The notes beneath the pieces were generated by a model. The model made no database searches. It saw only the letters and a program-made list of their open reading frames with translations, and was not told the origin of the DNA. A stretch of 32,420 nt of DNA, taken from Anaerobranca gottschalkii DSM 13577. GTDB lineage: Bacteria; Bacillota; Proteinivoracia; Proteinivoracales; Proteinivoracaceae. The stretch's first letter is position 1. The number at the start of each line of letters is the position of its first letter. The stretch lies in the NCBI RefSeq assembly GCF_900111575.1, contig NZ_FOIF01000024.1, positions 1 through 32,420 on the forward strand, written 5' to 3'. The translations under genes were made by a program, and so were the position numbers. Below, one piece after another: positions 2,103 through 27,627 of this stretch.

Positions 2103-3531
2103 TAATTATAAGCCGGCAATAGGATTAGAAATCCATGTAGAGCTAGCCACAAAGACTAAAGGATTTTGTGGATGCCTTAATAAATTTGGTTCCCATCCCA
2201 ATACCAACACCTGTCCTGTTTGTTTAGGATTGCCCGGTGCTTTACCGGTGTTAAATGAACAGGTAGTGGAGTTAGCGGTAAAGGCAGGGCTTTTACTAAA
2301 CTGCAAAATTCAGAAAAGAAGTGGCTTTGACAGAAAAAATTACTTTTATCCCGATTTGGTTAAAGGTTATCAAATTACCCAATACTATCAACCAATAGCT
2401 ATCAATGGGTTTTTAGATTTTAAAACTGGAGGTAAAGATAAAAGAATTAAGATAGAACGGATCCATATTGAAGAAGATACAGGAAAAGCCCTTTATCAAA
2501 GGGAAGGGGTTTTATTAGATTTTAACCGTTCTGGAGTACCATTATTAGAAATAGTAACAGCTCCAGACTTTAATAATGCTGAAGAAGTGAAGGATTTTTT
2601 AGAAACTTTAAGGCTTTATCTACTACACGGTGAAATTTCCCATTGCAAGTTAGAAGAAGGGAATATGCGAATAGATGTTAATATTTCTTTAGCAACGGAA
2701 GGTACCCTTGGTGTTAAAAGGGAAATAAAGAATTTAAATTCCTTTACTAATGTGGTAAAGGGGATAAATGAAGAATTAAATAGGCAAATTAGAAACTTAA
2801 CGTTGAAAAAAGAGATAAAAAGGGAAACTTTGAAATGGGATGAAGAAAAAAATACTTTAGTTACTTTAAGGGAAAAAGAAAATCCTTCCAATTATATGTA
2901 TTTTCCCGAATATGACCTTCCCCACATAGTATTAACCGAGGAATATATTCAAAAAATAAAGGATAGGTTATCAAAAACTCCAGTAGAAAAAGAAAGGGAG
3001 TTAAAAAAATTAGGATTGGCAGCAGAGGATGTAGAATTTTTGATTAAAGATAAGGATTTGTTAAAATTATTCGATGAAACGGTAAAATATTTCAATGGAG
3101 CTAAAGAAATTGTCAATATTTTTAAAGGGGATTTAACCAGATATCTAAAGGAACAGGGAAAAAAATTAGAGGATTTAAATTTAGATCCCCAAAATTTTGC
3201 TAGTACTATAGAAGTTCTTAACAGCTTACAATACTCTAACTCAATTAAAAGAAAAATTTTATTCACTTACTTGGAAGAAGGGAAAGAACTAAAGGAAATA
3301 TTAAAGCTTCTAAATTTAAAAAATTCTCCCGCTGATGAAGAGGTTTTGGAAGTTATTAAAAAGGTAATAGAAGAAAATCCTCAAGGAATCGTAGATTATT
3401 TAGAGGGGAAAAAGAAAGTTGTAGGTTATTTTATGGGCCAAATTATGAAGGAAAACAAAAGTTTTAATCCGCAGAAGGTAGAGGAATTGTTATTAAGTGA
3501 ATTAAATAATTTAAACCCTCCAGTATTATAA
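2092..3531 (+). CDS. gatB: Asp-tRNA(Asn)/Glu-tRNA(Gln) amidotransferase subunit B (GatB)
   Basis: GatB binds the misacylated tRNA, activates its carboxyl group with ATP and performs the amidation. The 479-aa protein has the family marks in order: GLEIHVEL (11-18), a zinc-site pattern with Cys26, Cys28, Cys41 and Cys44 (the last pair in CPVCLGLPGALPVLN), DRKNYFYPDLVKGYQ, HIEEDTGKALY and DFNRSGVPLLEIVT. A helical YqeY-like tail for tRNA binding ends in VVGYFMGQIMKEN. The ATG overlaps gatA and is preceded by GAAGGAGTGG. The stop codon lies inside the terminator hairpin. Confidence 0.96.
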   Translation: MDYNNYKPAIGLEIHVELATKTKGFCGCLNKFGSHPNTNTCPVCLGLPGALPVLNEQVVELAVKAGLLLNCKIQKRSGFDRKNYFYPDLVKGYQITQYYQPIAINGFLDFKTGGKDKRIKIERIHIEEDTGKALYQREGVLLDFNRSGVPLLEIVTAPDFNNAEEVKDFLETLRLYLLHGEISHCKLEEGNMRIDVNISLATEGTLGVKREIKNLNSFTNVVKGINEELNRQIRNLTLKKEIKRETLKWDEEKNTLVTLREKENPSNYMYFPEYDLPHIVLTEEYIQKIKDRLSKTPVEKERELKKLGLAAEDVEFLIKDKDLLKLFDETVKYFNGAKEIVNIFKGDLTRYLKEQGKKLEDLNLDPQNFASTIEVLNSLQYSNSIKRKILFTYLEEGKELKEILKLLNLKNSPADEEVLEVIKKVIEENPQGIVDYLEGKKKVVGYFMGQIMKENKSFNPQKVEELLLSELNNLNPPVL

Positions 3532-3547
3532 TAATTGGAGGGTTTTT
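3513..3547 (+). terminator. intrinsic terminator of the gat operon
   Basis: AACCCTCCA (3514-3522) pairs perfectly with TGGAGGGTT (3536-3544), followed by a T run. The left arm overlaps the last codons of gatB. It could also act weakly on the convergent small gene that ends at 3573. Confidence 0.85.
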
Positions 3548-3572
3548 GCTATTAAACTATAAAATTAGACAA

Positions 3573-3746
3573 TTATTTTTTATGATAGTCAACGATTATA
3601 GCTATGATACCTAGAATAAATGCGGCAGCAGGAATTAAATAATATATTTTTGGGAAAAAAACACTATGGGGATGCAAAAAGGTAATTATTAAACCTATTG
3701 CCGTTAGGAAAAGTCCAGTAATAAAATAAGGGGTACCCTTTTCCAT
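3573..3746 (-). CDS. small two-helix membrane protein, 57 aa
   Basis: Reading the minus strand between gatB and hslO gives an intact 57-aa frame starting MEKGTPYFITG and ending IVDYHKK. It contains two hydrophobic segments (about residues 7-24 and 36-52) separated by a short polar loop (HPHSVFFPK), a typical two-pass small membrane protein. The ATG is preceded by GAAGGG at nine bases' spacing. A good promoter, TTGCTT-N17-TAAAAT, lies about 40 bases further upstream. I do not recognise the family and give no function. The hydrophobic pattern, ribosome binding site and promoter together make a real gene likely. Confidence 0.65.
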   Translation of the reverse strand: MEKGTPYFITGLFLTAIGLIITFLHPHSVFFPKIYYLIPAAAFILGIIAIIVDYHKK

Positions 3747-3786
3747 AAAACCATTCCCTTCATATTAATTTGCTACCTTTCCTTAA

Positions 3787-3815
3787 ATTTTAACAAACTT
3801 TATTTAATAAAGCAA
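3787..3815 (-). promoter_or_regulatory. promoter for the 57-aa membrane protein
   Basis: On the minus strand, TTGCTT (3815-3810) and TAAAAT (3792-3787) are 17 bases apart, upstream of the small gene and downstream of the hslO terminator. Confidence 0.5.
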
Positions 3816-3880
3816 TATAATATTTTTAATTTTAATAATTATTTAACATTAAGGTGTAGGGGAGATCTGTAATAAATTAA

Positions 3881-3919
3881 TAAAAATATAAAAACAGGGG
3901 GCAAAACTGCCTCCTGTTT
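3881..3919 (-). terminator. intrinsic terminator of hslO
   Basis: A 10-bp stem (plus-strand arms 3894-3903 and 3908-3917, one G-U type pair) with a 4-base loop begins at the hslO stop codon. On the minus strand it is followed by TTTTATATTTTT. Confidence 0.85.
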
Positions 3920-4787
3920 ATAATTCTTCAACAATTTTCCTTAATTCTTCAGAGGTAAATTGGTATTTTTCATTACAAAAACTGCAAACTAGTTGAATTT
4001 GTTCTTCTCTAGATAATTCTTCTAATTCTTCTTTGCCTAAACTGATTAAACTTGAAATGTATTTTTCTTTACTACAGTTACATTTATAGGTTAGTTGTTG
4101 CTTATCTAAAATTTGGGGGTTTAAGTCGCCCACTAACCAATTGATGATTTCTTCTGGAGTTTTAAGATCTAAAATTAAATCAGTTACCCCTTTTAATAAT
4201 GATAATTTACCTTCAATAATTTGAAGCTCTTCTTCGGTAGCTCCTGGCATAACACTAATTAAAAAACCTCCTGCAACAATAATTGAACCATCGGTATCCA
4301 CTAAAACTCCTAATCCAAAGGAAGAAGGTTTTTGTTCTGATTTAGCGTAATAGTATGTTAGATCTTCCGCTATTTCACCAGATACTATCGGTAAACTAGA
4401 GGAATATGGCTCCTTTAATTTAAGGTCTTTTATAACATAAATGTTTCCTTTACCTACACCCTTGGACACATCTATTTTCCCTAGGCTGTTAGGTGGTAAT
4501 TGAACATGGGGATTGTGAACATACCCTCTAACTTCCCCTACTTTAGCATCAGCGAAGACTACCCCTAGTGGACCATCTCCATCTAGTTTTAAATTAATTT
4601 TTTCTTCACCTTTAAACTCAGCAGAAGCCATTAGTAAAGCTCCTGTCATCAATCGTCCTAAAGCTGCAGAAGCTACAGGGTATAATTCATGCCTATTTCT
4701 AGCTTCATTTACTAGATTGGTTGTTACAGCAGCTAAACAACGGATATGGCCATTGGCAGCTGTACTGTGTACTAAGTAATCTTTCAT
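3918..4787 (-). CDS. hslO: redox-regulated holdase chaperone Hsp33
   Basis: Hsp33 is a cytosolic chaperone that is inactive while zinc is held by four reduced cysteines. It becomes a holdase when oxidised and unfolded. The 289-aa protein has the N-terminal core (DYLVHSTAANGHIRCLAA; GRLMTGALLMAS; PGATEEEL) and the complete C-terminal zinc switch: Cys236-x-Cys238 and Cys268-x2-Cys271. The ATG follows GGAGG with proper spacing. The gene has its own promoter, which overlaps the 3' end of the upstream HD-GYP gene, and a strong terminator. It can therefore be expressed separately from its neighbour. Confidence 0.96.
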   Translation of the reverse strand: MKDYLVHSTAANGHIRCLAAVTTNLVNEARNRHELYPVASAALGRLMTGALLMASAEFKGEEKINLKLDGDGPLGVVFADAKVGEVRGYVHNPHVQLPPNSLGKIDVSKGVGKGNIYVIKDLKLKEPYSSSLPIVSGEIAEDLTYYYAKSEQKPSSFGLGVLVDTDGSIIVAGGFLISVMPGATEEELQIIEGKLSLLKGVTDLILDLKTPEEIINWLVGDLNPQILDKQQLTYKCNCSKEKYISSLISLGKEELEELSREEQIQLVCSFCNEKYQFTSEELRKIVEEL

Positions 4788-4806
4788 AGATATAGCCTCC
4801 TAATCT

Positions 4807-4847
4807 AATACTAAAAGTATTATATCAAAGTATTCATAGACTCACAA
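4807..4847 (-). promoter_or_regulatory. hslO promoter with inverted repeat at the start site
   Basis: On the minus strand TTGTGA (4847-4842) lies 17 bases from a perfect TATAAT (4824-4819). AATACT-AAA-AGTATT (4807-4821) forms a 6-bp inverted repeat just past the -10 and could be an operator or a small leader hairpin. The -35 lies at the stop codon of the HD-GYP gene. Confidence 0.65.
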
Positions 4848-5888
4848 GGAGACGATATCGACAATTCTAACCTTTTCTTTTCGTAGATCTAAAAAGGTAT
4901 TATCGTTAATTTTTATTACCGGTCTATGGGTATCACTGGGATTAATGTAAATAATATCTCCAGTTCTGCCATCACTTAACAAAACTTTATTACCGACATA
5001 AAATCTCGTGATATTATCTAAGAAAATTCTAGATACCTTAGGATCTAATGTGCCAAAACTACTTTTTGAAATTTCCTCTGCAATGATGAAGGGGGAGTGT
5101 TTTTCTCGATAGGTTTTATTTGAACTCATAGCATCAAAGACATCGGCGACAGCAATAATTTTGCCAAATAGGTGAATACTATCTCCCTTTAAACCATGGG
5201 GATATCCAGAACCGTCAACCCGCTCATGGTGGGATAAGACCCCTAAAGTTATATCTTTACTTATTTCCGGTCGGGTTGCTAGCATTTGAAAACCAAAGAC
5301 CGGGTGTTTTTGTATTTCTTTAAATTCTTCTTCAGTTAATTTTGAAGGTTTATCTAAGATGCTTTTCGAAATTTTAAGTTTGCCAATATCATGGAGTATA
5401 CCGGAATAAATTAACCTTCTGATTTCCCCATCTTTAAGTTCAAGCCATTTACCCATAGCACCACTTAATATACCAACATTTAAAGAATGTTTGTTTAGAT
5501 ATGTAGTTTCCGTTCTCTGATTTAATATTCTGCCCCAGAGGTTAGTTGTATTACGGAGTATTTCTAAAACAATACAGGCTATTTCCCTAAGTAATTCTAA
5601 AGAAAATTTTTTTCCCTCTTCTATGGAGTCTAGGAGTTGGCTTGTTAGAATAAGGCACTGTTGGTACTTATCGTTAAAGGTTATGACATCTTCCCTTTCA
5701 TTTGGTGGTTCACTTTTTTGAAGAAACTCAGTTTCGACAAAAACTTCAGTTATTCCCATTTCTTTAAGGCGATTGATTAAGTATTCAGTTAAAACTGTTC
5801 CTTGCGTCAATAAAATGCTACCGTGTTTTGTTAAAATATCTTTACCTACCTTTGTACCCGGTGTTAAATCACTAATTTTTACCCACAT
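4842..5888 (-). CDS. HD-GYP domain cyclic-di-GMP phosphodiesterase-like protein
   Basis: The HD-GYP family hydrolyses cyclic di-GMP (some members cGAMP) at a metal centre. In this 348-aa protein, residues 1-60 form a small beta-rich N-terminal domain like those before other HD-GYP proteins. The catalytic domain spans about 125-290: His134, HDIGK at 166-170, KHPxxG with His195, SHHERVDGSGYP at 219-230 (with the GYP triad) and Asp249. All motifs look intact. The C-terminal 55 residues resemble a small SH3-like barrel. No membrane segment or receiver domain is visible, so the input signal is unknown. A GTG nine bases upstream lies in the ribosome binding site (AAGGTG), so the ATG at 5888 is chosen. 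Confidence 0.92.
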   Translation of the reverse strand: MWVKISDLTPGTKVGKDILTKHGSILLTQGTVLTEYLINRLKEMGITEVFVETEFLQKSEPPNEREDVITFNDKYQQCLILTSQLLDSIEEGKKFSLELLREIACIVLEILRNTTNLWGRILNQRTETTYLNKHSLNVGILSGAMGKWLELKDGEIRRLIYSGILHDIGKLKISKSILDKPSKLTEEEFKEIQKHPVFGFQMLATRPEISKDITLGVLSHHERVDGSGYPHGLKGDSIHLFGKIIAVADVFDAMSSNKTYREKHSPFIIAEEISKSSFGTLDPKVSRIFLDNITRFYVGNKVLLSDGRTGDIIYINPSDTHRPVIKINDNTFLDLRKEKVRIVDIVSL

Positions 5889-6031
5889 CGTAATCACCTT
5901 TTTTTAAAGTTTATTTTTTTATAAATTTCGACTTTAATAGATTTTTTTCCTTCTTTTGGGAATAGTTTTTTTAATACTTTAGTAATAATAAAGATTTAAA
6001 AAAGGGAAATTAAGATAGAGGAGGTGATAAT

Positions 6032-6202
6032 GTGGAAGAGAAAAGAACATTTGAAGTTGGTGGAATGAGGGTGACAAAACTAGTTAATCAGAAGGAAATT
6101 GATCAGTTTGTACAAAATTTGCCAGAAGAAAGTAAACAAGATGTTAAAGATGTAATAATGGCCCTCCATCAACAAGGGTTAATTAAAATTGAAGAAGTAT
6201 AA
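6032..6202 (+). CDS. small hypothetical protein, 56 aa, GTG start
   Basis: A strong ribosome binding site GAGGAGGTGA precedes GTG at 6032, opening a 56-aa frame (MEEKRTFEVGGMRVTKLVN... to QGLIKIEEV). The overlapping ATG at 6030 reads only 12 codons. The protein is charged and probably helical, with no Cys, no membrane segment and no signal peptide. The strong site and the perfect 14-bp terminator just after the stop argue for a translated gene. I do not recognise the family. It is isolated between the divergent HD-GYP gene and the dehydrogenase. Confidence 0.75.
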   Translation: MEEKRTFEVGGMRVTKLVNQKEIDQFVQNLPEESKQDVKDVIMALHQQGLIKIEEV

Positions 6203-6206
6203 ATTT

Positions 6207-6257
6207 AAAATACTCGACATTATTTTCCAGGAAATATGTCGAGTATTTTCCTTTATG
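6207..6257 (+). terminator. intrinsic terminator after the 56-aa gene
   Basis: Perfect 14-bp stem: AAAATACTCGACAT (6207-6220) with ATGTCGAGTATTTT (6236-6249), then CCTTT. The arms end in A/T runs on both sides, so it may work in both directions. Confidence 0.88.
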
Positions 6258-6306
6258 ATATAATTATCAATAAAAAAAGTGGTAATAATTTGAAAGGAGA
6301 GAAAAC

Positions 6307-7071
6307 ATGGTCAGTTATAATGGAATAAAGGAATATTTAGATAAAGTGGTAATTGTAACAGGAGGGGGAAATGGAATAGGTAGGGGCTTATGTGAAGCCT
6401 TTGCTAGTCAAGGGGCCAAAGTGGTTATAGCTGAGATTGATAAAGTTAAGGGAAAAGAATTAGAAGACATTTTAAATTCTAATGGTTACATAGCACATTT
6501 TATTTATACAGATATGGGAAATCCTGATTCAATAATAGAAATGGTAGAAAAGGTAGAAAAAATGTGGGGTAAACTAGATATTTTAGTCAACAATGCCGCT
6601 GTAGGCCATAATTCTCCTCTATGGGAGAGGGATGATAGAGATTGGGAAAGGGTTATTGCAGTAAATTTAAGTGGTCCCTATTATGCTGCTAAATATTGTT
6701 CAAAACTCATGGCAAAGGGAAAGGGAGGAGTAATTATAAATATTGCTTCTACTAGGGCCTTTATGTCAGAGGAAAATACTGAGCCATACTCTGCATCTAA
6801 AGGTGGAATTATTGCTTTAACCCATAGTCTAGCTATTAGTTTAGGAAAATACAATATTAGGGTTAATTCTATCAGCCCTGGCTGGATTCATACTGGAGCT
6901 GAATCTGAATTAACTGAAGGAGATCATCGACAACATCCTGTAGGTCGGGTGGGAAAGATAGAAGATATAGTTTCTACTTGTCTGTACTTAACTTCAGAGA
7001 GAGCTGGATTTATCACAGGAGAAAATATAATCATTGATGGTGGTATGACCAAAAAGATGATTTATATATAA
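6307..7071 (+). CDS. short-chain dehydrogenase/reductase (SDR), classical type
   Basis: A cytosolic NAD(P)-dependent oxidoreductase of 254 aa. The Rossmann motif TGGGNGIG (18-25), NNAA (95-98), Asn120, Ser148 and the YxxxK catalytic pair (Tyr161, Lys165) are all present. It resembles the glucose-1-dehydrogenase/3-oxoacyl-ACP-reductase group, with the usual ending 'GFITGENIIIDGGMT'. An acidic residue at the end of the second strand (IAEIDK, about 41-46) suggests a preference for NAD(H). The substrate cannot be read from sequence. The ATG follows AAGGAGAG. It is a single gene: a terminator precedes it and the next gene has its own promoter. Confidence 0.93.
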   Translation: MVSYNGIKEYLDKVVIVTGGGNGIGRGLCEAFASQGAKVVIAEIDKVKGKELEDILNSNGYIAHFIYTDMGNPDSIIEMVEKVEKMWGKLDILVNNAAVGHNSPLWERDDRDWERVIAVNLSGPYYAAKYCSKLMAKGKGGVIINIASTRAFMSEENTEPYSASKGGIIALTHSLAISLGKYNIRVNSISPGWIHTGAESELTEGDHRQHPVGRVGKIEDIVSTCLYLTSERAGFITGENIIIDGGMTKKMIYI

Positions 7072-7121
7072 AGAAAAATTGTATTTCCTAAAATGTTTAT
7101 AATAAATTTATAATTGTATAA

Positions 7122-7182
7122 TTGACTAGGGATATGGAATAATATACAATTAGAATTACCGACCGACCGTTCGGTCGGTAAT
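7122..7182 (+). promoter_or_regulatory. RND/tetR operon promoter and TetR-type operator
   Basis: TTGACT (7122-7127), 17-base spacer, TACAAT (7145-7150). Starting four bases after the -10 is a long palindrome: ATTACCGACCGA (7155-7166), CCGT, TCGGTCGGTAAT (7171-7182), perfect 12-bp arms. A second overlapping palindrome, ACCGACCG-TT-CGGTCGGT (7162-7179), is centred two bases further on. Its position over the start site and the tetR gene at the end of the operon indicate autoregulation by that TetR. Confidence 0.85.
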
Positions 7183-7205
7183 ATTTGTGTAGAAGGAGTG
7201 AAAAA

Positions 7206-10200
7206 ATGTTATCTAATTATAGTGTGAAAAAACCATACACAGTAGTTGTAGGAGTAATAATAGTTGCCCTATTAGGGGTTGTATCTTTAATGAATATGAC
7301 TACTGACTTGTTGCCAAGCTTGAATTTACCCTATGCGGTAATTTCTACAACTTATATAGGAGCTAGTCCTGAGGAAGTAGAAACAGTAGTGACAAGGCCC
7401 ATAGAACAAGCTATGGCTTCATTAAATAACCTCAAGAATATCTCCTCTATTTCTAGAGAGAACATGTCTTTAGTTATTTTAGAGTTCACCGCTAGTGCCA
7501 ATATGGATTCAGCTTTTGTAGAGATGCGGGAAAGTTTAGATATGATCATGGCTTATATGCCTGATGGTGTAGGAAATCCCATAATGTTAAAACTAAACCC
7601 TGATATGATGCCTATAATGGTGTTATCAGTGGCTATGGAAGGAATGGAAATTGGGGAATCTTCCCAATTTGTTTCAGATAATATAATCCATGAATTTGAA
7701 AGTATTGAAGGGGTAGCCTCTGTATCGGCATCAGGTTTAGTGGAAAGTGGTATCCATATTATCCTTAGGGATGAAAAAATAGAGGAAGTCAATCAAAATT
7801 TAGCTAATTTCTTTAGAATGACTGTTCCCCATATGCCAGCACCTAATATTTCTATCAATAGAGAAATGGTCTCTGGTATTTTAAAAGGTCAAAATTTTTC
7901 AATGCCAGCAGGTTATATCACTGAAGATGGTGTTAGTTATTTAGTAAGAACAGGAGATGCCATCAAAGATATAGATGAACTGAAAAATTTGCCGATAATA
8001 ACTTTACCTTTCCCTAACTTAGAACCAATAACGTTACAAGATGTTGCAGAGATTATAGTAACAGATAATTCTGATACGATGTACACCAAACTTAATGGCA
8101 ATAATGCTGTTATATTAAATATTCAAAAGCAATCGGAATACTCAACAGCGGATGTAGCTAATAGGGTAAGGGAAAGAATTGCAGTTTTAGCAAATCGATA
8201 TCAAGGTTTAGATATAGTTCCATTGATGGATCAAGGGATCTATGTAGATATGGTTGTCAGTTCTATATCTAATAACCTAATCTTTGGTGGTATTTTAGCT
8301 GTTGCAATTCTCTTGTTATTTTTACGGGATATCAGACCAACTATAGTAGTAGGATTTGCCATCCCGGTAAGTTTAGTTACAGCACTAGTGATGATGTATT
8401 TTAGTAATGTAACACTAAACATTATTTCAATGGGTGGTTTAGCTTTAGGGGTAGGAATGTTAGTAGATAATTCCATAGTTGTGATTGAAAACATCTATAG
8501 GATGAGGAGTGAAGGAAAAAGCCCTAAAGAGGCAGCGGTGGAAGGAGCTGTAGAGGTTTCTGGAGCGATAATGGCTTCAACTTTAACTACGGTATCTGTA
8601 TTTGCACCAATTCTCTTTACCCAAGGGATAACAAGGCAGCTCTTTACTGATATGGGATTAACAATTGCTTATTCCCTCTTTGCTAGTTTAATCATTGCGT
8701 TAACCCTTGTACCGATGATGGCTTCGAATATAATAGTTAAAGAGGTAAATAGGGAAAATAAGGTTTTGGATAAAGTTAAAGGAATATATACTAATATTCT
8801 AGAATTTTCCTTAAGGAAAAAATGGCTAGTAATAATTTTGGTTACAGTCCTTTTTGTTACTAGTATAGTTAGTGCCTTTAGTTTAGGAACGGAGTTTTTC
8901 CCAGCAACCGATACAGGTCAGATAATGGTTGATATAACCATGCCGGAAGGAAGTTCCTTTAAAGATACTGTGAATATCGCCGATGAAGTTATGGAAATAG
9001 TTAAAGATATTCCCTATGTTGCTCATGTGGGAGGAACTATAGGCGGTAGGATGGGCTTCGGTTTTATGGGGGGTAGAAGATCGGGGGATAATGCTTTAAT
9101 ATATGTATTAGTAGATGAAGAAAACATTAATAAAACTCCAGAAATTATTAGGGAAATTCGGGAAAAGGTTAAAGATATTCCCGCTGAAATCAGTGTTAGG
9201 GATAGTGGTTCAGATATGAGTGCCATGACAGGAGGTAGAGGTATAGCCATTTCTGTCATGGGTAGAGATTTTCATATCCTTGAAAATATTGCTAAAGATA
9301 TAGCCCAAATCGTAGAAAGTGTAGAAGGAACAACAGAAGTATTTGATGGCATTGATAGAACAGAACCGGAAATAAGGGTGGTTGTAGATAAAGAGAAGAG
9401 TATTGCTTATGGTTTAACTGTCGCACAAGTTTTTATGGAGATTAATAATTTACTTCGCAGTCCCGGTGTAGATACAACTATTACTATAGGAAATATTGAT
9501 TATGGCATTAGAGTTAAAGATGAAAAAGCTACCAAAGGGATAACAAGGGAAGAGCTGGAAAATTTAGTTATAAAAGGTCCTAATGGAGAAGTGCCATTAA
9601 AAGATATTGCGAAAATTGAAGATGGTTGGGGCTATGGTTCAATTAGAAGGGAAAATAGCCAAAGGTTATTGACAGTAACGGCTGAACTTGAAGAAGGGTA
9701 TAATATTGGTTTAGTAAACAGGGAAATTAGTAGGAAATTGTCAGATTACCAATTGCCAGAAGGTTATAGAATTAAAGTTGGGGGCGAACAAGAAGCAATT
9801 GATAATGCATTTAGAGATTTATTCTTTATGTTAGCCTTGGCTGTAGCTTTGATTTACTTAATTATGGTAGCTCAATTCCAATCTTTACTATCACCTTTTA
9901 TCGTTATGTTTACTATTCCATTAGCCTTTACTGGAGGATTTTTTGCTCTAAGAGTTACAGGAAATCCTGTGAGTATTGTAGCCTTTATCGGTCTAATAAT
10001 TTTATCGGGGGTAGTAGTTAATAATGGTATAGTTTTTATCGACTATATAAACATTTTAAGGAGAAGAGGTCTAACAAAGAGGGATGCCATTATTACCGCT
10101 GGTAATGTCCGTTTAAGACCGATAATAATGACAGCTTTAACGACTATAATAGCTTTATCTACTATGTCTGTTGGTATGGGTACTGGAACAGAAATGATTC

Positions 10201-24498: not shown

Positions 24499-24532
24499 TA
24501 ACCCTCCCTAAATTTCGGGAGGGTATTTTATT
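24499..24532 (+). terminator. intrinsic terminator of the symporter gene
   Basis: ACCCTCCC (24501-24508) with GGGAGGGT (24517-24524), followed by ATTTTATTATT. Confidence 0.85.
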
Positions 24533-24740: not shown

Positions 24741-25829
24741 ATGACGGTATTTAGAATTATTATGTGGCTTTGTGGTTTGTGGTTATTGTTTAAAATACCC
24801 AATTTTATTTCAATAAGAGAAGGTTTGGAAGAAGAGTTGAAGGATGTATCTATAATAATACCGGCAAGGAACGAAGAAAACAGGTTGCCAGGATTATTAA
24901 AATCCCTAAAAGAACAAAGGGTTTATCCTAAAGAAGTAATCGTGATAGATGATCAGTCTACAGATAGGACCGTGGAGATTGCTAAAGATTACGGAGCAAA
25001 AGTAGTAAAGGGTAAACCATTACCTTCAGGATGGCAAGGAAAGTCATGGGCCCTCTGGCAAGGGGTAGAAAGCTCTACAGGAGAAATACTAATCTTTTTA
25101 GATGCTGATACCAGGATTGAACAGGATGGGCTAAAGAAGATATACACAGAATTTCTAAAAGAAAAAACTCCATTATCTATTCAACCGTATCATAAAATGG
25201 AGAAACTTTATGAAAATCTATCTGCTATTTTTAATTTAATTCTAATGATGGGTACTAATGTTTTTACACCACTAGGTAGAAGATTAAAACCTTTAGCCTT
25301 TTTCGGACCTTGCCAAATTATGACTAGGGAGGATTATTATAAAGTAGGTGGCCATAGTATGGCTAAGGGAAGTATTTTGGAAGACATAAGTTTAGGGAAA
25401 AATTTTTTGAAACAAGGAATACCTATAAGGTGTTTTGGTGGTAAGGGGGCTATTTCATTTAGGATGTATCCTGGAGGAATAGGGGAGATAATTGAAGGAT
25501 GGAGTAAAAATTTTGCATCTGGAGCTGGTCAAGTAGGGATTATTAATTTATTACTTATAAGTTTATGGGTTACAGGAATGGTGGGTATAACTATAAATAC
25601 TTTTAAGACCCTTTTAGTTGGGGAATATTTATTAGAAGTTTATGGTCTTTTTTTACTATATGGCTTACAACTTTACTGGTTTCTAGTTAAAATCGGTAAT
25701 TTTTCCCCTTTTATAATAATTTTCTTTCCTATCAACTTAATATTTTTCATTTATGTTTTTGTCCGGTCCATAGTAATGACCTTCATTTTAAAAAGAGTTA
25801 GTTGGAAAGGAAGAAAAATTAAAGTATAG
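24741..25829 (+). CDS. crtQ: CrtQ-like family 2 glycosyltransferase
   Basis: A 362-aa membrane-linked GT-A enzyme. TM1 covers about 1-20. The catalytic domain has PARNEE (41-46), VIDDQSTDRT with Asp70/Asp71, DAD (121-123), the segment LSIQPYHKMEKLYENLSAIF, acceptor-site Glu-Asp (214-215), FRMYPGG and EGWSKNFASGAG (252-263, with the Trp of the processive-like motif). Three C-terminal membrane helices follow, and the end is VSWKGRKIKV. This order and wording closely resemble S. aureus CrtQ, 4,4'-diaponeurosporenoate glucosyltransferase of staphyloxanthin synthesis. No carotenoid backbone genes are in the window, so the acceptor could be another lipid. The next gene is a crtO homologue. Confidence 0.85.
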   Translation: MTVFRIIMWLCGLWLLFKIPNFISIREGLEEELKDVSIIIPARNEENRLPGLLKSLKEQRVYPKEVIVIDDQSTDRTVEIAKDYGAKVVKGKPLPSGWQGKSWALWQGVESSTGEILIFLDADTRIEQDGLKKIYTEFLKEKTPLSIQPYHKMEKLYENLSAIFNLILMMGTNVFTPLGRRLKPLAFFGPCQIMTREDYYKVGGHSMAKGSILEDISLGKNFLKQGIPIRCFGGKGAISFRMYPGGIGEIIEGWSKNFASGAGQVGIINLLLISLWVTGMVGITINTFKTLLVGEYLLEVYGLFLLYGLQLYWFLVKIGNFSPFIIIFFPINLIFFIYVFVRSIVMTFILKRVSWKGRKIKV

Positions 25830-25841
25830 ATGGTGATAAAA

Positions 25842-26345
25842 ATGAGGATATTTTATTTTTCAACGGCAACAACAATTATTTTAAATATTTTCTTGTGGTT
25901 TATTATCCATATGACTTTTGGTTTTTTTGGCAATAAGTTTCCTAAAAAGTGGTTCGAAGGAAATAGAGGAATTTATAAAAGTTTTTCTTGGGAAGATGAA
26001 GGAAGGTTTTATGAAAGGGTTTTTAAAATAAAAAGGTGGAAAAAGTATTTACCAGATGGGGGAGATTTTTTTTCTAATGGTTTTGCTAAAAAACATTTAA
26101 AGACTAGAAACTATGAATATTTAATTACTTTTTTAGAAGAAACAAGGAGAGCAGAATTGGTTCACTGGTTACAAATTATACCAGTAATTATATTTTTCCT
26201 TTTTAACCTCTGGTGGGTAGGGCTAATAATGGTTATTTATGCCCTAGCTGTCAACCTCCCTTGCATTATTGCTCAGCGATATAATCGGCCAAGATTACAA
26301 AAGATAATAGATAGAGAAAAGTGTGAATTGGAGAAGGTGATTTGA
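25842..26345 (+). CDS. crtO: CrtO-like glycosyl-carotenoid acyltransferase
   Basis: A 167-aa protein with an N-terminal membrane helix (about 7-28), a charged cytosolic segment (KSFSWEDEGRFYERVFKIKRWKKYLPDG) and two further hydrophobic stretches (112-123 and 126-144). RAELVHW (103-109) and QRYNRPRL (145-152) are the strongest marks of CrtO, which in S. aureus esterifies the C6 hydroxyl of the glucosyl-carotenoid with a fatty acid as the last step of staphyloxanthin synthesis. The ATG at 25830 lies upstream of the GGTGAT site, so 25842 is chosen; it also matches the S. aureus N-terminal length. The pair crtQ-crtO would glycosylate then acylate one acceptor. Confidence 0.85.
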   Translation: MRIFYFSTATTIILNIFLWFIIHMTFGFFGNKFPKKWFEGNRGIYKSFSWEDEGRFYERVFKIKRWKKYLPDGGDFFSNGFAKKHLKTRNYEYLITFLEETRRAELVHWLQIIPVIIFFLFNLWWVGLIMVIYALAVNLPCIIAQRYNRPRLQKIIDREKCELEKVI

Positions 26346-27595
26346 TGGCTATCGGCTATGCATGTATTACATTAGGGATAAAAGATTCTTTAAAAGGTTG
26401 TGTTTTAAAAAATGCTACAGAAAGGAAATTATTAGAAATCATTGAGCACAATTTAGGGGTTTTAGAAAGACAAATAGAATATAATCTGGAAAATAATATC
26501 AGACTTTTTAGAATTAGTTCAGATATAATTCCCTTTGGTTCCCATATTATAAATGAGTTAAAATGGTGGGAAATATTTAAAGAAAAGCTAGAAAAAATAG
26601 GGGACAAAATAAAGGATAATGGGATTAGGGTATCTATGCATCCCGGTCAATACACAGTTTTAAATTCCCCTAATGAAGAAGTTGTAAGAAATGCTGTCAG
26701 AGATTTAGAATATCATTGCAGATTTTTAGATAGTCTAAAAGTTGATAAAGCCTGTAAGGTGATTTTACATATTGGAGGTATTTATGGTGACAAAAGGAAA
26801 GCCTTAACTAGGTTTTCCAAAAATTACTCTAAGTTAGGTGATAATTTAAAAAAAAGATTGGTTATAGAAAATGATGAAAAGGCTTTTAATATTAAAGAAG
26901 TATTAGATCTAGGGGTAAGTTTAGGAATACCAGTTGTTTTTGACAATCTTCACCATACTATAAATAAGCCAGAAGGAGAAAAAGGAGATCTATACTGGAT
27001 AAAAAAGGCAGGAGATACATGGGAAGATGGCGATGGAAAGCAAAAAATCCATTACTCGCAACAAAAAATAGGGGGGAAAGTAGGTAGCCATTCAGACACC
27101 ATTTTTGTACAAGATTTTTTTGATTACTATAAAGAAATAGGTGGAGATAATTTTGATATTATGTTAGAAGTCAAAGATAAAGACTTATCGGCAATTAAAT
27201 GTATTAATTGTATTGAAAAGGCAAGTATAACCGAGCTGGAAAAGGAGTGGGCAAAATATAAATATATTGTTTTAGAAAAATCAGCTAAAATATACGGGGA
27301 AATACGGAACTTATTGAAAGATAAAAGTAACCCTCAACCTTTAGTATTTTATAATTTAATAGACACTGCATTAAAATTGCCGGAAAATAAAGGGGGAGCA
27401 GTTAATGCTTTAGAACATATATGGGGATATTTTAAAGATAAAGCTACCCCTAAAGAAAAGGAAAAATTTTTTCTATTATTAAATGAATATAAAATAGAAG
27501 ACAAACCGTTGGAGAAGGTTAAAAATTACTTAGCCAGCTTATCAAATAAATATCAAGAGAACTATCTTCTCCGATCTTATTATTTTCTTTATTAA
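26345..27595 (+). CDS. uvsE: UV damage endonuclease UvdE/UvsE with C-terminal DUF1722-like domain
   Basis: UvdE nicks DNA 5' of cyclobutane dimers, 6-4 photoproducts and abasic sites. In the 416-aa protein, the TIM barrel spans about 1-290. Metal-site residues match the Thermus enzyme one for one: His99 (SMHPGQ), His142, Glu175 (IENDE), Asp200 and His203 (FDNLHHT), His236, His249 (GSHSD) and Glu275 (LEVKDK). Residues about 325-416 add a second region (VNALEHIWGYFKDKATPKEKEK ... LLRSYYF) resembling DUF1722 (YbgA), a domain found beside photolyase genes. Typical Bacillus UvsE is about 320 aa. The ATG overlaps the crtO stop codon by one base (TGATG), so the three genes are coupled. Confidence 0.88.
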   Translation: MAIGYACITLGIKDSLKGCVLKNATERKLLEIIEHNLGVLERQIEYNLENNIRLFRISSDIIPFGSHIINELKWWEIFKEKLEKIGDKIKDNGIRVSMHPGQYTVLNSPNEEVVRNAVRDLEYHCRFLDSLKVDKACKVILHIGGIYGDKRKALTRFSKNYSKLGDNLKKRLVIENDEKAFNIKEVLDLGVSLGIPVVFDNLHHTINKPEGEKGDLYWIKKAGDTWEDGDGKQKIHYSQQKIGGKVGSHSDTIFVQDFFDYYKEIGGDNFDIMLEVKDKDLSAIKCINCIEKASITELEKEWAKYKYIVLEKSAKIYGEIRNLLKDKSNPQPLVFYNLIDTALKLPENKGGAVNALEHIWGYFKDKATPKEKEKFFLLLNEYKIEDKPLEKVKNYLASLSNKYQENYLLRSYYFLY

Positions 27596-27601
27596 TATAT
27601 A

Positions 27602-27627
27602 TAAGCCAAGGAAAAATCCTTGGCTTA
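27602..27627. terminator. hairpin terminator between convergent uvsE and glvA
   Basis: TAAGCCAAGGA (27602-27612), loop AAAA, TCCTTGGCTTA (27617-27627): an 11-bp perfect stem between two converging genes. Neither side has a long T run, so efficiency is uncertain. Confidence 0.65.

What the first reader, a model, noticed from the sequence alone, without database searches (positions are those of the whole stretch)
26345..27595. UvdE fused to a DUF1722 (YbgA)-like C-terminal domain
The barrel ends near residue 290 with all metal ligands present, yet about 90 more residues follow. Their pattern (N-A-L-x-H-x-x-GYF, EKxxF, Y-LL-x-x-YY) resembles DUF1722, whose genes sit beside photolyase phr in E. 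coli. A physical fusion with a UV-damage endonuclease would link this uncharacterised domain directly to UV repair, perhaps in lesion recognition or in passing the nicked product on.
Basis: partly seen in the sequence, partly recalled or inferred. Interest (0 to 1): 0.68.

Follow-up and report, generated by a model that had tools for sequence, protein, structure and literature searches.

The report
UV-repair nuclease with DUF1722 tail
This bacterial gene encodes a UV-damage DNA endonuclease permanently joined to a small helical domain of uncertain function (DUF1722); the same domain turns up fused to, or beside, two other unrelated enzymes that repair UV-damaged pyrimidines, so it is probably a helper module for UV repair, and the fusion is common rather than unique.

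Summary
Window 26345-27595 (+) encodes 416 aa: a UvdE barrel (PF03851, E 6.5e-69) followed by a full DUF1722 domain (PF08349, E 6.5e-24, residues 306-414). It is not a lone fusion or an artefact: 12 of 299 sampled genomes of the phylum and about 80 named species (output cap; Clostridia, Lactobacillales, spirochaetes) carry the same ~417-aa protein. The fused UvdE domains form one clade, while stand-alone UvdE lacks the tail. AlphaFold predicts a SacUVDE-like barrel plus a rigid all-helical domain with no solved relative. New here: DUF1722 of the same subfamily is also fused to T4-endonuclease-V-like pyrimidine-dimer glycosylases (2 genomes), or encoded end-to-end with one (one genus); the RudS/YbgA branch adjoins photolyase. 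UvdE and PDG never co-occur in 295 genomes of one order, and DUF1722 tracks either. DUF1722 is not wholly uncharacterised: in RudS (TudS-DUF1722) it helps bind tRNA (PMC11417400), but that branch is deeply separate (SH-aLRT 100). Most likely function: an accessory nucleic-acid-docking module of a working UV endonuclease. The architecture and association are shown; the function is inferred. New variant of a known kind, mainly useful because it makes the role of DUF1722/ybgA testable.

The parts
26345..27592 (+). UvdE-DUF1722 fusion protein, 416 aa (coding part; stop codon at 27593-27595)
   Evidence: ATG at 26345 agrees with the start M-x-I-G-Y-A-C conserved in the relatives
26345..27214 (+). 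UvdE TIM-barrel endonuclease domain, residues about 1-290
   Evidence: PF03851 and TIGR00629; the predicted fold superposes on SacUVDE 3tc3, rmsd 1.2 A, TM 0.96 by target
27260..27586 (+). DUF1722 (PF08349) domain, residues 306-414, all-helical
   Evidence: AF2 of the domain alone pLDDT 97.0; no PDB or BFVD match at E<=0.001
27602..27627 (.). inverted repeat after the gene, terminator-like (11-bp stem); also usable from the opposite strand
   Evidence: consensus match only
25830..26345 (+). upstream gene, CrtO-type glycosyl-carotenoid acyltransferase family (PF18927), overlapping the fusion start by one base; probably co-transcribed
   Evidence: same order in the sister genome G129 (L033)
24741..25829 (+). 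upstream gene, family-2 glycosyltransferase, first gene of the probable three-gene unit
   Evidence: terminator-like hairpin at 24501-24524 before it

Best explanation
The protein is a working UV-damage endonuclease that nicks DNA 5' of pyrimidine photoproducts with its UvdE barrel, as Thermus and Sulfolobus UVDE do. Its C-terminal DUF1722 domain is an accessory nucleic-acid-docking module, rigidly attached to the barrel, that holds the substrate away from the active site and so helps lesion search or binding. This would parallel RudS, where DUF1722 grips the tRNA anticodon arm while the TudS domain acts at s4U8. DUF1722 is therefore a portable helper that evolution has attached to several pyrimidine-photoproduct enzymes. 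Shown: the fusion, its conservation, its probable single origin, the predicted fold, and the genomic association with UvdE, PDG and photolyase. Inferred: the nicking activity of this member, DNA binding by DUF1722, and the docking role.
For: Domain scores. All barrel ligands present in the window protein, and all but H67 invariant in the fusion clade. Confident two-domain model, pLDDT 94.9 and pTM 0.90, which implies a defined domain arrangement. ~417-aa architecture in 12/299 phylum genomes and ~80 named species. UvdE tree: fused domains form one clade, SH-aLRT 89, with 98 for 31 of 34 rows. The same DUF1722 subfamily is fused to Pyr_excise in two genomes and encoded end-to-end with Pyr_excise throughout most of genus g212. 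RudS genomes lacking the fusion have photolyase in 5 of 6, background 16/293, p 6e-6; two are directly adjacent. In one order DUF1722 without UvdE goes with PDG 47/76 against 25/161. RudS DUF1722 mutants S243M and R244M lose tRNA desulfidation activity (PMC11417400 Table 2).
Against: No biochemistry on any UvdE-DUF1722 protein was found. The UvdE-fused DUF1722 belongs to a branch deeply separate from RudS/YbgA, so tRNA binding cannot simply be carried over. The domain is only mildly basic (net charge -1 to +10 across fusions, +4 in the window). 29 of 76 genomes with DUF1722 but no UvdE also lack PDG, and photolyase could not be checked there. Genomes are not independent samples; outside g212 the DUF1722-PDG link weakens to p about 0.004-0.02. 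H67 is Ser in 60% of fusions, so activity may differ from classical UVDE.
Confidence: 0.5

Rival explanations
1. DUF1722 is a protein-protein adaptor that couples the UV-incision enzyme to the next step (exonuclease, polymerase, ligase) or to another cell component; it does not touch nucleic acid itself.
For: Small all-helical domain with conserved aromatic residues (W302, Y305, Y307, Y317, Y336, W360), only mildly basic; it occurs both fused and as a separate gene, as adaptors do.
Against: In RudS, mutations in DUF1722 loops reduce activity on tRNA and docking places it on the anticodon arm (PMC11417400). No constant neighbour gene that could be the partner was seen around the fusions or the stand-alone copies.
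Confidence: 0.22
2. DUF1722 keeps an RNA (tRNA) binding role, so UvdE-DUF1722, PDG-DUF1722 and photolyase-linked DUF1722 act on, or are steered by, photodamaged tRNA or translating/transcribing regions rather than free DNA.
For: RudS precedent; the PMC11417400 authors report ThiI in 94% of species with a DUF1722 domain gene; K306, N354, H358 and G361 are shared across both DUF1722 branches.
Against: 5 of 12 fusion genomes lack a full ThiI match (one has none at all), so s4U made by canonical ThiI is not required. The partner enzymes (UvdE, PDG, photolyase) are DNA-repair families. Deep split from the RudS branch.
Confidence: 0.13
3. The tail is a structural cap that stabilises or redirects an altered UvdE barrel (first metal ligand often Ser); it has no separate function.
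For: Strict co-inheritance: intact fusions all have about 141-149 residues after E275, the few shorter ones being broken frames; H67 is lost in most fusions but kept in 17/17 stand-alone UvdE; confident fixed interface.
Against: DUF1722 exists alone and on unrelated enzymes, so it is an independent domain; the window protein keeps H67 and still carries the tail.
Confidence: 0.13
4. The match is an artefact: an assembly or frame error, or a subdomain that all UvdE proteins have.
For: None found.
Against: Single open frame, same architecture in many independent assemblies, significant PF08349 score, absent from stand-alone UvdE.
Confidence: 0.02

Closest known systems
UvdE / UvsE UV-damage endonuclease (PF03851, TIGR00629; 3tc3/4gle SacUVDE, 2j6v TthUVDE)
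   Same: Barrel fold (rmsd 1.2 A to 3tc3), all metal ligands in the window protein, the lysine carboxylated in Thermus UVDE, and the HPGQY probe loop
   Different: About 125 extra residues forming a DUF1722 domain; the clade often replaces the Thermus H69 ligand by Ser
RudS (TudS-DUF1722 tRNA 4-thiouridine desulfidase, PMC11417400)
   Same: C-terminal DUF1722 on a catalytic domain linked to UV/light stress; shared K-N-H-G residues
   Different: The catalytic domain is an endonuclease, not an Fe-S desulfidase; its DUF1722 lies on the other side of a branch with SH-aLRT 100
YbgA (E. coli b0707), stand-alone DUF1722 in the ybgA-phr operon
   Same: PF08349 domain (E 5e-35) next to a pyrimidine-dimer repair enzyme
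   Different: Separate gene, photolyase partner, RudS branch of the tree
Pyrimidine-dimer DNA glycosylase (PF03013, T4 endonuclease V family) fused to DUF1722 (G253, G258)
   Same: Photoproduct-incision enzyme with a C-terminal DUF1722 of the same branch
   Different: Unrelated catalytic domain and chemistry (glycosylase/lyase)

Membership tests
UvdE / UvsE (PF03851, TIGR00629) | Significant match to the curated models | tested here: met
   232.7 bits against cut-off 24; TIGR00629 211 against 124
UvdE / UvsE (PF03851, TIGR00629) | Metal ligands, the lysine carboxylated in Thermus UVDE, and the probe loop | tested here: met
   All present in the window protein; H67 not conserved across the fusion clade
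UvdE / UvsE (PF03851, TIGR00629) | UVDE-type TIM barrel | tested here: met
   Model matches 3tc3 at rmsd 1.2 A, TMt 0.96
UvdE / UvsE (PF03851, TIGR00629) | Nicks DNA 5' of CPD and 6-4 photoproducts | not testable with these tools
   needs an enzyme assay
DUF1722 (PF08349) | Score above the curated cut-off over most of the profile | tested here: met
   84.9 bits against 22.5, profile positions 1-113 of 117
DUF1722 (PF08349) | Residues conserved across RudS, YbgA, PDG-fused and stand-alone members (K306, N354, H358, G361) | tested here: met
   invariant in a 16-sequence alignment across both branches
RudS | N-terminal TudS (PF04463) domain with Fe-S cysteines | tested here: not met
   N-terminal domain is UvdE; no PF04463 match in this protein; stand-alone TudS elsewhere in the genome
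RudS | DUF1722 of the RudS/YbgA branch | tested here: not met
   window domain falls in the other branch, split with SH-aLRT 100
RudS | tRNA binding through DUF1722 | not testable with these tools
   needs a binding assay

The most novel reading that the evidence does not exclude
DUF1722 is a general pyrimidine-photoproduct module: evolution has joined it, by fusion or operon, to UvdE, to T4-endonuclease-V-like glycosylases and to photolyase, and (as RudS) to the enzyme that removes the tRNA near-UV chromophore s4U. It would work by engaging the distorted photodamaged nucleic acid itself. This would give a function to E. coli ybgA and a whole Pfam family of unknown function.
Probability: 0.3. 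Interest if true: 0.75.

Novelty: new variant of a known kind. Interest (0 to 1): 0.55.

Why it matters
DUF1722 has a described role only in RudS. PMC11417400 states that 74.4% of DUF1722 is TudS-fused and 21.4% stand-alone; the passages read do not mention UvdE or PDG partners, and the word 'endonuclease' is absent from that paper. Three unrelated pyrimidine-dimer repair enzymes tied to the same small domain suggest a common, unrecognised step in UV repair. The fusion offers a one-polypeptide system (full length against barrel) to test it, and gives the E. coli ybgA-phr operon a concrete hypothesis.

Tried and rejected
Artefact and 'all UvdE share it' readings: rejected. A conserved neighbour gene as a functional clue for the fusions: none in ORF maps of 11 fusion loci; most stand-alone DUF1722 genes also lack a shared neighbour. 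Fold-based inference for DUF1722: no solved or viral relative, in line with the Dali result in PMC11417400. Viral homologues of the fused DUF1722: none confirmed; viral UvdE hits lack the tail. A diverse DUF1722 alignment could not seed a viral scan. Avoidance of photolyase by fusion genomes (0 of 12): background is only 7%, so uninformative. Mapping the RudS_KT mutants onto this domain was left out because the KT2440 sequence was not at hand.

Full report
Observation. The frame at 26345-27595 (+) is open and gives 416 aa. Pfam finds UvdE at residues 25-261 (E 6.5e-69) and DUF1722 at 306-414 (E 6.5e-24, 84.9 bits, cut-off 22.5, nearly the whole profile); the tail alone scores the same. TIGR00629 extends the UvdE match to residue 285. 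It is the only UvdE and the only DUF1722 in this 2.3-Mb genome.

How common it is. In 299 genomes spread over the phylum, 12 carry the full-length fusion, in several families (alignment of 11). A scan of one genome per species returned 80 relatives (the output cap), most about 417-421 aa, at 46-65% identity: Clostridia, Lactobacillales (Trichococcus, Alkalibacterium, Desemzia, Jeotgalibaca), spirochaetes (Treponema parvum, Pleomorphochaeta), and MAGs labelled as other phyla, whose labels may be binning errors. In the order of G292 (probably Lactobacillales) 49 of 58 UvdE genomes also hold DUF1722, nearly always as the fusion; the nine without DUF1722 are all one genus. A few copies are broken frames; no clean loss of the tail was seen in the fusion clade. 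Stand-alone UvdE has 17-43 residues after the last ligand, fusions about 142. A tree of UvdE domains puts the fused ones in one clade (SH-aLRT 89; 98 for 31 of 34 rows), which fits one fusion event followed by spread.

Active site. The window protein has every UvdE ligand position: H67, H99, H142, E175, D200, H203, K234, H236, H249, E275, and the QY probe residues. The first (Thermus H69) is His in only 21 of 80 fusions (Ser in 48) but His in 17 of 17 stand-alone enzymes; the others are invariant in the fusions wherever that stretch is present. The ligand assignments rest on established knowledge of Thermus UVDE; numbering was transferred through the alignment.

Structure. AlphaFold2 on 60 fusions gives pLDDT 94.9 and pTM 0.90. 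The barrel superposes on SacUVDE (3tc3, also the 6-4PP complex 4gle) at 1.2 A; the helical tail has no counterpart there. The tail modelled alone reaches pLDDT 97.0 and has no PDB or viral match at E<=0.001. The best sequence match of YbgA in the PDB is insignificant.

Other places of DUF1722. In the phylum sample DUF1722 occurs as RudS (eight matches), as the UvdE fusion, and in rarer forms. Two of the rare forms, in G253 and G258, are fusions of Pyr_excise (PF03013, pyrimidine-dimer DNA glycosylase) with DUF1722. In G292 a stand-alone DUF1722 gene ends exactly where a Pyr_excise gene begins; the same end-to-end or slightly overlapping pair recurs in nearly all sampled genomes of that genus, g212. 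RudS follows photolyase with a 4-base overlap in G197 and converges on it in G052; a 264-aa DUF1722 protein follows photolyase in G605; Aeromonas has RudS-MerR-phrB; E. coli has ybgA-phr. Of six genomes with RudS but no fusion, five have photolyase against 16 of 293 others (p 6e-6). In 295 genomes of the G292 order UvdE and PDG never co-occur (14 expected), and DUF1722 without UvdE goes with PDG in 47 of 76 against 25 of 161 (p 1e-12). Outside g212 this weakens to 16 of 44 (p 0.004-0.02, depending on the unknown size of g212). Relatedness inflates these p values.

Tree of DUF1722. 95 domains split with SH-aLRT 100 into a RudS/YbgA/photolyase-linked branch and a branch with the UvdE-fused, PDG-fused and most stand-alone domains. 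K306, N354, H358 and G361 are shared across both; columns are few, so inner forks are weak.

Mechanism. PMC11417400 shows that RudS removes s4U from tRNA and that DUF1722 substitutions (S243M, R244M, N203M) impair it; docking puts DUF1722 on the anticodon arm. By analogy the tail of UvdE is most likely a docking arm for the nucleic-acid substrate. This is inference: the branch differs, charge is only mildly positive, and no assay exists. Adaptor, RNA-targeting and structural-cap rivals remain open.

Context in the window. A glycosyltransferase gene (24741-25829), a CrtO-type gene (25830-26345) and the fusion form a probable three-gene unit between terminator-like hairpins at 24501-24524 and 27602-27627; the sister genome G129 keeps the order, the other fusion loci examined do not. 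PMC11417400 notes RudS near carotenoid clusters, so the neighbour is suggestive only.

Literature. No held paper joins DUF1722 with UvdE or pyrimidine dimers; ten mention DUF1722 at all. The library lacks most subscription journals, and domain databases may already list the architecture, so the novelty claim covers description and interpretation, not first sight.

Noticed in passing
L230 5439-6197; L231 5351-6067; L229 5656-6399: Pyrimidine-dimer glycosylase fused to, or encoded end-to-end with, DUF1722.
   Followed up: yes
order of G292, 295 genomes: UvdE and T4-endonuclease-V-like PDG never occur in the same genome (58 and 72 genomes, 14 overlaps expected), as if they replace one another.
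   Followed up: partly
fusion clade, residue H67 of the window protein: The Thermus H69 metal ligand is Ser in 48 of 80 fusions but kept in 17 of 17 stand-alone UvdE; the metal site may be changed.
   Followed up: partly
IMG/VR loci L125-L204 (20 aligned): Viral UvdE has Leu or Cys where bacterial UvdE has the carboxylated lysine (20 of 20) and mostly Glu at the H69 position (16 of 20).
   Followed up: no
window 24741-26345: Glycosyltransferase and CrtO-type acyltransferase genes directly upstream, probably co-transcribed with the fusion; whether the genome has carotenoid genes was not checked.
   Followed up: partly
G061:C37, G164:C51, G189:C37: In family f18 a ThiI-like PP-loop gene (about 330-360 aa) lies next to stand-alone TudS, and no full ThiI is found.
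   Followed up: no
NZ_CP113425.1 (L309) 3274-7500: A Lactiplantibacillus plasmid carries stand-alone DUF1722 about 2.5 kb from a Y-family DNA polymerase; other plasmids with DUF1722 show different neighbours.
   Followed up: partly
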